Assembly: GCA_000424365.1 (NCBI GenBank)
Contig: AUJT01000002.1
Span: forward strand, 124,001 to 188,000
Source: Lachnospiraceae bacterium NK4A144
GTDB lineage: Bacteria > Bacillota > Clostridia > Lachnospirales > Lachnospiraceae
DNA: 64,000 nt
Direction: 5' to 3'
Shown here: positions 882-59,415 of the stretch, piece by piece
How positions within the stretch are numbered: the stretch's first letter is position 1
Layout: each line of letters opens with the position of its first letter
Made by a program: the position numbers and the translations under genes
The notes under the pieces: generated by a model
Told to the model about the DNA's origin: nothing
Databases searched by the model: none
What the model saw: only the letters and a program-made list of their open reading frames with translations

Positions 882-1042
882 ATCGGATCGTTACTGTTCA
901 CTCGCTTCCAGCTCGCTCACGTAACGGATTTTGCCAATTAAATCGCCTTCGGCGATGGGCAAAATCCAATGGCTTTTCATCGTTCTTGGTCGTAAACTCC
1001 GCAGTAAATGCTCCGTTTACGTCTGAACTGTAACATCGGATC
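882..1042. mobile_element. MITE-like element copy 1 with 8-bp flanking repeats
   Basis: The element spans 890-1034 (145 bp). It begins GTTACTGTTCA and ends TGAACTGTAAC, which are terminal inverted repeats with one mismatch. Directly outside lie identical 8-bp repeats ATCGGATC at 882-889 and 1035-1042, as expected of a target-site duplication. Internally there is a hairpin (926-967, stem GGATTTTGCC/GGCAAAATCC, inner ATCGCC/GGCGAT) and a second stem CGTAAAC/GTTTACG (991-997/1015-1021). It has no coding capacity. Copies at 27202 and 59261 share ends and architecture. Confidence 0.8.
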
Positions 1043-27131: not shown

Positions 27132-27193
27132 GATCTATACCTCTTTCAATTTTTTCAGCGGCGTGGTACTTCCTGCTACCTGTGAACTACCAC

Positions 27194-27355
27194 CGCAATC
27201 TGTTACTGTTCACTCGCTTCCAGCTCGCTCACGTAACGGATTTTGCCAATTAAATCGCCTCCGGCGATGGGCAAAATCCAATGGCTTTTCATCTTTCTTG
27301 GTCGTAAACTCCGCAGCGTAGTGCTCCGTTTACGTTTGAACTGTTACCGCAATCT
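27194..27355. mobile_element. MITE-like element copy 2 with 8-bp flanking repeats
   Basis: The element spans 27202-27347 (146 bp), about 95% identical to copy 1 by eye. It begins GTTACTGTTCA and ends TGAACTGTTAC. Identical 8-bp repeats CGCAATCT abut both ends (27194-27201 and 27348-27355). The internal hairpin GGATTTTGCC/GGCAAAATCC is at 27238-27279. It lies between the divergent GT-C-like and DAHP synthase genes, so it may affect either promoter. Confidence 0.82.
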
Positions 27356-59251: not shown

Positions 59252-59415
59252 AAAAGAGCCGTTACTGTTCACTCGCTATCAGCTCGTTCCAGTAACGACT
59301 TCGCGCATTTATGAGAGTTCGCCTGCGGCGAAAAATGCGCTCACACCCACATCACTTTCTTACGCAGTCAGCGGCATAGCGCTTCCTGCTACATGTAAAC
59401 TGTAACAAAAGTGCC
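59252..59415. mobile_element. MITE-like element copy 3, diverged, with 9-bp imperfect flanking repeats
   Basis: The element spans 59261-59406 (146 bp), begins GTTACTGTTCACTCGC and ends GTAAACTGTAAC. It is flanked by AAAAGAGCC (59252-59260) and AAAAGTGCC (59407-59415), one mismatch. The internal sequence differs from copies 1 and 2, yet the central hairpin is kept (GCGCATTT/AAATGCGC, inner TTCGCC/GGCGAA, 59303-59340). It was inserted between the ROK terminator and the operator of the GH20 promoter. Confidence 0.75.

What the first reader, a model, noticed from the sequence alone, without database searches (positions are those of the whole stretch)
882..1042. A family of ~146-bp non-autonomous elements with GTTAC-type inverted ends and flanking 8-9 bp duplications
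Three copies (890-1034, 27202-27347, 59261-59406) have nearly equal length (145, 146, 146 bp), begin GTTACTGTTCA and end with its approximate inverse. Each is flanked by direct repeats: ATCGGATC, CGCAATCT, and AAAAGAGCC/AAAAGTGCC. That is what transposition by an enzyme making 8-9 bp duplications leaves behind. No element codes for protein, so a transposase must act in trans. I know of no named MITE with these ends.
Basis: seen in the sequence. Interest (0 to 1): 0.8.

Follow-up and report, generated by a model that had tools for sequence, protein, structure and literature searches.

The report
Rumen-bacterium MITE family moved by IS66
A short, gene-less jumping DNA element is present in about 130 places in this rumen bacterium's genome, and the enzyme that most likely moves it was found, intact, in close relatives.

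Summary
The window holds three full-length copies and a remnant; the genome has 130 matches to the element's 29-base head (reversed-pattern control 0). Of 103 distinct copies examined, 58 have an exact 8-bp target duplication. Four unoccupied sites align without gaps between genomes, each with one base changed in the 8-mer. So these are mobile insertions. The probable partner is a 2237-bp insertion sequence in two relatives (MC2017, MA2020): ends GTTACAGTTCAGAC, 8-bp duplication, IS66-type transposase. A published ISBst12-group IS66 element has similar ends and an 8-bp repeat (PMC12898284). Only a decayed piece of it was found in the window's genome. Element and IS share only 11-16 terminal bases. 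The interior folds into hairpins with paired changes on both arms; 55-bp insert forms and 36-bp solo forms also occur. The paired changes show no G-U excess, which favours DNA-level palindrome maintenance over a functional RNA. Verdict: a new MITE family, with no IS66 MITE found in the papers searched. Mechanism ordinary; folded interior the interesting part.

The parts
890..1034 (+). MITE copy 1, 145 bp, subfamily A, ends GTTACTGTTCA / TGAACTGTAAC
882..889 (.). left 8-bp target duplication of copy 1 (ATCGGATC)
1035..1042 (.). right 8-bp target duplication of copy 1 (ATCGGATC)
27202..27347 (+). MITE copy 2, 146 bp, subfamily A
27194..27201 (.). left 8-bp target duplication of copy 2 (CGCAATCT)
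27348..27355 (.). right 8-bp target duplication of copy 2 (CGCAATCT)
27155..27188 (+). remnant of a subfamily-B right end just upstream of copy 2, up to 91% identical over 34 bp
59261..59406 (+). MITE copy 3, 146 bp, subfamily B
59252..59260 (.). left duplication of copy 3 (AAAAGAGCC)
59407..59415 (.). right duplication of copy 3 (AAAAGTGCC, one mismatch)
890..925 (+). 36-bp head module of copy 1; it ends in GTAAC, an internal copy of the inverted end. Similar modules occur alone elsewhere with 8-bp duplications
926..967 (+). hairpin 2 of copy 1: outer stem, loop on the 5' side, inner stem
991..1021 (+). hairpin 3 of copy 1: outer stem, internal loop, inner GCA/TGC stem

Best explanation
[quoted passage not shown] The transposase recognises the terminal GTTACWGTTCA sequences, inserts the element into a staggered target cut, and gap filling leaves the 8-bp duplication. 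Shown: copy number, terminal sequences, 8-bp duplications, unoccupied sites, and an IS with the same ends and duplication length in relatives. Inferred: recognition of the MITE ends by this transposase, and the reaction itself. The MITE keeps only the tips of the IS; its interior is unrelated sequence folded into hairpins. Most likely those hairpins are kept as DNA palindromes by strand-switching repair or replication rather than as a coded RNA. The 36-bp forms are most simply deletions between the internal GTAAC and the right-end GTAAC. In the window's genome the IS seems to have decayed, leaving the MITEs stranded or dependent on a transposase not seen in the draft assembly.
For: 130 head matches, reversed control 0. 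58 of 103 distinct copies have exact 8-bp duplications and 15 more have 1-2 mismatches. One 146-bp sequence recurs letter for letter at 14 sites with 14 different left flanks, 10 of them in the own genome; 13 of the 14 have exact duplications. Four unoccupied sites, ungapped across the junction, each with one mismatch in the 8-mer: own C7 copy against a MAG (95.5%), own C4 copy against the same MAG (93.2%), a MAG copy against the own genome (99.66%), and an MC2017 copy against KH1P17 (178 of 178 positions aligned, 92.7%). Partner IS: 2237 bp; three contig-end matches at 100% protein identity in MC2017 and three at 92% in MA2020. In each genome two of the three carry the matching flanks of a single insertion split over two contigs, so there may be two insertions each. 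Ends GTTACAGTTCAGAC at both tips; flanks CATAGCTC (MC2017) and CCTTTGCT (MA2020) on both sides. A relative in another genus has GTTACTGTTCA at both tips and an exact duplication GCCGGAAT on one contig, though its transposase frame holds one stop. Transposase: Pfam IS66 DDE domain 69.6 bits against cutoff 23.1. The right tip of copy 1, GTCTGAACTGTAAC, equals the IS tip over 14 bases, 16 with MA2020. ISDge4 of the ISBst12 group: tips GTGACTACTCAGCA/GTAACTGCTCAGCA and an 8-bp direct repeat (PMC12898284, passages).
Against: No intact IS was found in the own genome or in most element-bearing relatives: 5 of 13 genomes had any match, and only 2 of 13 (MC2017, MA2020) an intact one above 90% identity. 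The protein falls below the NCBIfam IS66 cutoff, 125.8 of 180 bits. IS and MITE share only their tips. No transposition was observed. Ten full-length copies in the own genome lack a recognisable duplication, and copy 3 in the window has an imperfect one. Transposases of other families were searched only in part.
Confidence: 0.88

Rival explanations
1. The interior is a functional RNA (or a regulatory hairpin read in mRNA) that spreads as a MITE; the paired changes are RNA selection.
For: 96.0% of cells paired, 24 cells changed on both sides against a shuffled mean of 4.8, and 0-5 for slid partners. A loop of 6-7 bases on the 5' side of hairpin 2 occurs in subfamily A and in three of eight subfamily-B folds (L032, L034, L153), although the outer stems differ in sequence. 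Interior folds better than shuffles in 12 subfamily-A sequences, mean z -2.5. Flanking genes on one strand: 22 antisense against 11 sense to the element head, a two-to-one skew.
Against: G-U pairs are not enriched: 5 G-U against 8 A-C cells of 1454. Folding is about equal on both strands. The orientation skew is modest and was not tested. In 8 subfamily-B sequences the interior folds only weakly better than shuffles (mean z -1.4 and -0.9 for the two strands). No Rfam family reaches gathering level in the window.
Confidence: 0.15
2. The elements are moved by a transposase of another family with similar ends.
For: The own genome has no intact ISBst12-like IS that the searches found. Other families (IS256, ISL3, IS1595, ISLre2) were not searched.
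Against: The ISBst12-like IS matches both end sequence and duplication length. An IS6-type domain was found in 1 of 4 genomes, without matching ends on both sides. The standard IS66 of the own genome reads ATTTCGCTTAC past its gene, not GTTAC.
Confidence: 0.08
3. The 36-bp forms transpose as 36-bp units.
For: Exact 8-bp duplications around three 36-bp forms in three genomes (L046, L150, L177). Their two ends match each other inverted over 5-7 bases.
Against: Deletion between the internal GTAAC and the right-end GTAAC gives the same product with the same flanks. The MC2017 orthologue of the L046 place has only 20 bases between the two aligned flanks, so no element, which does not separate the two. 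Of the three own-genome cases only L046 is exact, and L251 may be a truncated longer copy.
Confidence: 0.2

Closest known systems
ISDge4 (ISBst12 group, IS66 family), Deinococcus geothermalis, PMC12898284 (passages read)
   Same: Similar terminal sequence, 8-bp direct repeat, no recognised IS66 accessory genes
   Different: Autonomous, with a single 449-aa ORF. The Lachnospiraceae IS has a 568-aa transposase and a second 98-aa frame with no Pfam or NCBIfam match
MITEPsy1, Pseudomonas syringae, PMC3189936 (passages read)
   Same: Short non-coding element whose ends match an IS; transposition was seen in a trap plasmid
   Different: 100 bp, 4-nt duplication, ends like ISPsy2 (listed as 'IS5?'); few copies
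MITEAba12, Acinetobacter, PMC6382973 (passages read)
   Same: Bacterial MITE derived from an IS
   Different: Paper reports only weak secondary structure; IS66 is not mentioned in its text
REPINs / REP palindromes, PMC3116915 and PMC3733652 (search listing only)
   Same: Palindromic repeats in high copy
   Different: From recall: mobilised by a Y1/HUH enzyme; here 8-bp duplications point to a DDE transposase

Membership tests
MITE (non-autonomous DNA transposon) | short, inverted ends, multi-copy | tested here: met
   mostly 143-147 bp; 130 head matches
MITE (non-autonomous DNA transposon) | target-site duplication of fixed length | tested here: met
   8 bp, exact in 58 of 103
MITE (non-autonomous DNA transposon) | unoccupied sites in relatives | tested here: met
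   four ungapped unoccupied sites, each with one mismatch in the 8-mer
MITE (non-autonomous DNA transposon) | no transposase inside | tested here: met
   follows from length: 36-202 bp cannot hold one
MITE (non-autonomous DNA transposon) | movement by the partner transposase | not testable with these tools
   needs an assay
ISBst12 group of IS66 (for the partner IS) | IS66 DDE domain | tested here: met
   PF03050 69.6 bits, cutoff 23.1
ISBst12 group of IS66 (for the partner IS) | NCBIfam IS66 equivalog cutoff | tested here: not met
   125.8 of 180 bits; so named ISBst12-like, not filed as a member
ISBst12 group of IS66 (for the partner IS) | 8-bp duplication | tested here: met
   GCCGGAAT on one contig; CATAGCTC and CCTTTGCT each across two contigs
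ISBst12 group of IS66 (for the partner IS) | ends like ISDge4 | tested here: inconclusive
   GTTACTGTTCAGAC against GTAACTGCTCAGCA 10 of 14; GTTACTGTTCACAC against GTGACTACTCAGCA 8 of 14 (sequences, counted by eye); one published example only
ISBst12 group of IS66 (for the partner IS) | single ORF, no tnpA/tnpB | tested here: inconclusive
   a 98-aa frame precedes the transposase; no Pfam or NCBIfam match
classical IS66 | GTAAGC-type ends (recalled) | tested here: not met
   partner IS ends GTTAC

The most novel reading that the evidence does not exclude
The hairpin interior is a selected, working part of the element at DNA level: single-stranded or cruciform hairpins of nearly fixed total span (mostly 143-147 or 200-202 bp, although subfamilies differ in sequence) take part in transposition, replication or host-factor binding, and the internal inverted end of the 36-bp head offers an alternative end. 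It would be a structured MITE class riding on IS66 transposases.
Probability: 0.25. Interest if true: 0.65.

Novelty: new member of a known kind. Interest (0 to 1): 0.45.

Why it matters
It gives a probable partner to a high-copy repeat of rumen Lachnospiraceae and, in the papers searched, the first MITE tied to the little-studied ISBst12/IS66 group. The MITE with the MC2017 or MA2020 IS is a ready pair for a two-plasmid transposition test. The paired hairpin changes without G-U excess also offer a natural data set on how bacteria keep palindromes perfect.

Tried and rejected
IS6-type transposase as partner: domain found in 1 of 4 genomes; its 487-aa protein has no matching ends on both sides. 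Standard IS66 of the own genome: no GTTAC ends found near it. A longer element with both MITE ends (up to 2 mismatches) and an exact duplication in the first 957 kb of loci: nothing from 203 bp to 4 kb except one 287-bp compound. Known RNA: no Rfam gathering match in the window; five sub-threshold hits in seven loci, of which one (rliE, 34.4 of 90 bits, L109:1175-1391) overlaps an element at L109:1279-1529. Paper searches for ISBst12 with MITE and Butyrivibrio with MITE returned 0 papers, and the end sequence 4 unrelated ones; broader ones gave capped lists in which I saw no IS66 MITE; passages of six listed papers were read. Window copy 1: three relatives lack it at the orthologous place, but 20-45 bp around the site also differ, so it is not a clean unoccupied site. 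Window copies 2 and 3 were not tested this way. One search flagged many rows across a junction; eight pairs were looked at, four are counted, three had gaps, one (L025) printed nothing; the other rows are nested repeats, self-matches or unexamined. MAFFT on both subfamilies misaligns hairpin 2, so pair counts used 24 of 32 representatives, dropping 8 subfamily-B rows; the 32 had been thinned from 70 distinct sequences of 140-147 bp. One search used 56 A rows of 70, 12 of which sit out of register in hairpin 3; its fold z-scores used 12 A and 8 B sequences.

Full report
What is there. The window is G000:C2:124001-188000 of a 4.09-Mb draft genome in 68 contigs. Copies 1 and 2 are one subfamily (A). 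Copy 3 is another (B), aligned to them by BLAST over the first 37 bases only. A 34-bp remnant of a B right end lies just upstream of copy 2 (27155-27188). All three lie between the long called frames.

Is it more than chance? The 29-base head matches 130 times in the genome with up to 3 mismatches, and the pattern read backwards 0 times. I examined 103 distinct heads: 45 of length 143-147, 9 of 200-202, 1 of 36 and 3 of other lengths have exact 8-bp duplications; 15 have 1-2 mismatches; 10 are full length without one, 16 truncated or other, 4 at contig ends. The rest of the 130 were not looked at one by one. Comparing left 8-mers with right 8-mers of other copies gives 12 exact of 5256.

Mobility. 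One 146-bp sequence occurs unchanged at 14 places with 14 different left flanks, 10 of them in this genome. Joined flanks align without gaps to unoccupied sites in four cases: own C7 copy and own C4 copy against a Lachnospiraceae MAG (95.5% and 93.2%), a MAG copy against the own genome (99.66%), and an MC2017 copy against KH1P17 (92.7% over 178 positions). The 8-mer at the unoccupied site differs by one base in each. Three other candidates had gaps and are not counted. Several copies share the flank ACGGATTG because the element sits at one place inside another repeat that itself spread.

Distribution. 5 of 61 genomes (own included) carry the head: own, 4 of 36 others of the genus, 0 of 24 from other families of the order; many are incomplete.

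The partner. A divergent IS66-domain protein in relative G030 lies in a 2237-bp element with GTTACAGTTCAGAC at both tips. G030 equals G262, the genome of an MC2017 locus, by identical coordinates. Its flanks, read from two contigs, are the same 8 bases, CATAGCTC. MA2020 has matches at 92% protein identity with the same first 14 bases at both tips and CCTTTGCT on both sides, again over two contigs. Each genome shows three matches, all at contig ends, of which two may be one insertion. A relative in another genus has GTTACTGTTCA at both tips and GCCGGAAT on both sides, with one stop in its transposase frame. The transposase matches Pfam IS66 (69.6 bits, cutoff 23.1) but is under the NCBIfam cutoff (125.8 of 180). 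Of 200 genomes drawn from the family 9 match at 1e-30, own included. Of 13 genomes that carry head matches, 5 match at 1e-10: MC2017 and MA2020 intact, one with a 42% and a 26% relative, own and G032 as broken pieces. The own piece is 401 bp, 98% identical, with two stops. G032 has a 752-bp internally deleted derivative with both tips but no matching flanks. ISDge4, of the ISBst12 group, has similar ends and an 8-bp repeat (PMC12898284, passages).

The interior. Of 32 representatives folded singly, 28 pair the two ends, 32 form the outer and 28 the inner stem of hairpin 2, 27 hairpin 3, and 21 all of these. On 24 subfamily-A representatives, 96.0% of 597 cells pair; 9 of 25 pairs and 24 cells changed on both sides (shuffled means 2.9 and 4.8; slid partners 0-2 and 0-5); the number of further pair types, 11, equals the shuffled mean. 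The shuffle control does not correct for relatedness. On 56 A sequences, cells are 1390 Watson-Crick, 5 G-U, 8 A-C, 51 other; new pair types are 12 Watson-Crick, 5 G-U, 4 A-C, 12 other. Two copies (L027, L181) have lost the loop and become near-perfect palindromes. I read this as DNA-level palindrome maintenance by template switching (a known process, recalled); selection on a folded DNA strand is not excluded. Subfamily B folds only weakly better than shuffles.

Variants. 200-202-bp forms carry about 55 extra bases, in hairpin 3 in own, MC2017 and KH1P17 copies and in hairpin 2 in G032; both inserts hold ACTAAGCTC...TTCGCTAAGT. 36-bp heads with exact duplications occur in three genomes (L046, L150, L177). 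114-bp forms recur.

Context. Of 63 own copies of 143-147 or 200-202 bp with a duplication, 57 had enough flank: 0 lie inside a frame of 90 aa or more; relative to the element head, flanking genes are both antisense in 22, both sense in 11, divergent in 19, convergent in 5.

Judgement. A new MITE family with its probable autonomous partner found; ordinary in mechanism, new as an IS66/ISBst12 case in the searches made, with a folded interior worth testing.

Noticed in passing
L077, L079, L099, L163 (near 1501 in the first three, 3592 of the reverse strand in L163): A second repeat family, TGATGTAAGGGTCAAAAG...TTTTGACCCTGACATCAT, hosts the MITE at one fixed site (flank ACGGATTG) with either the 146- or the 201-bp form, so the 55-bp module was probably gained or lost in place.
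   Followed up: partly
L137:2881, L168:5989 and 6078, L188:3452, L045:2919, L052, L055, L126, L149: A third repeat, ACTAAGCTCGAAAATACCTCGCTAAGT with small variations, resembles the core of the 55-bp insert.
   Followed up: no
L273:1429-2180 (G032): A 752-bp internally deleted derivative of the partner IS with both tips kept, a possible step from IS to short element; its flanks do not match, and the second listing (L277) may be the same copy at the other end of the contig.
   Followed up: partly
L213:1510-1909 (own genome C3): Decayed 0.4-kb piece of the partner IS, 98% identical to the MC2017 copy.
   Followed up: yes
G000 contigs C6, C22, C53, C54: These contigs begin or end exactly at an element boundary, so the draft assembly breaks at these repeats and copy number may be underestimated.
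   Followed up: partly
L198, L199, L200 (G032): A 487-aa transposase with a weak IS240-type domain in a 1.86-kb repeat, three copies at 99.8-100%.
   Followed up: no
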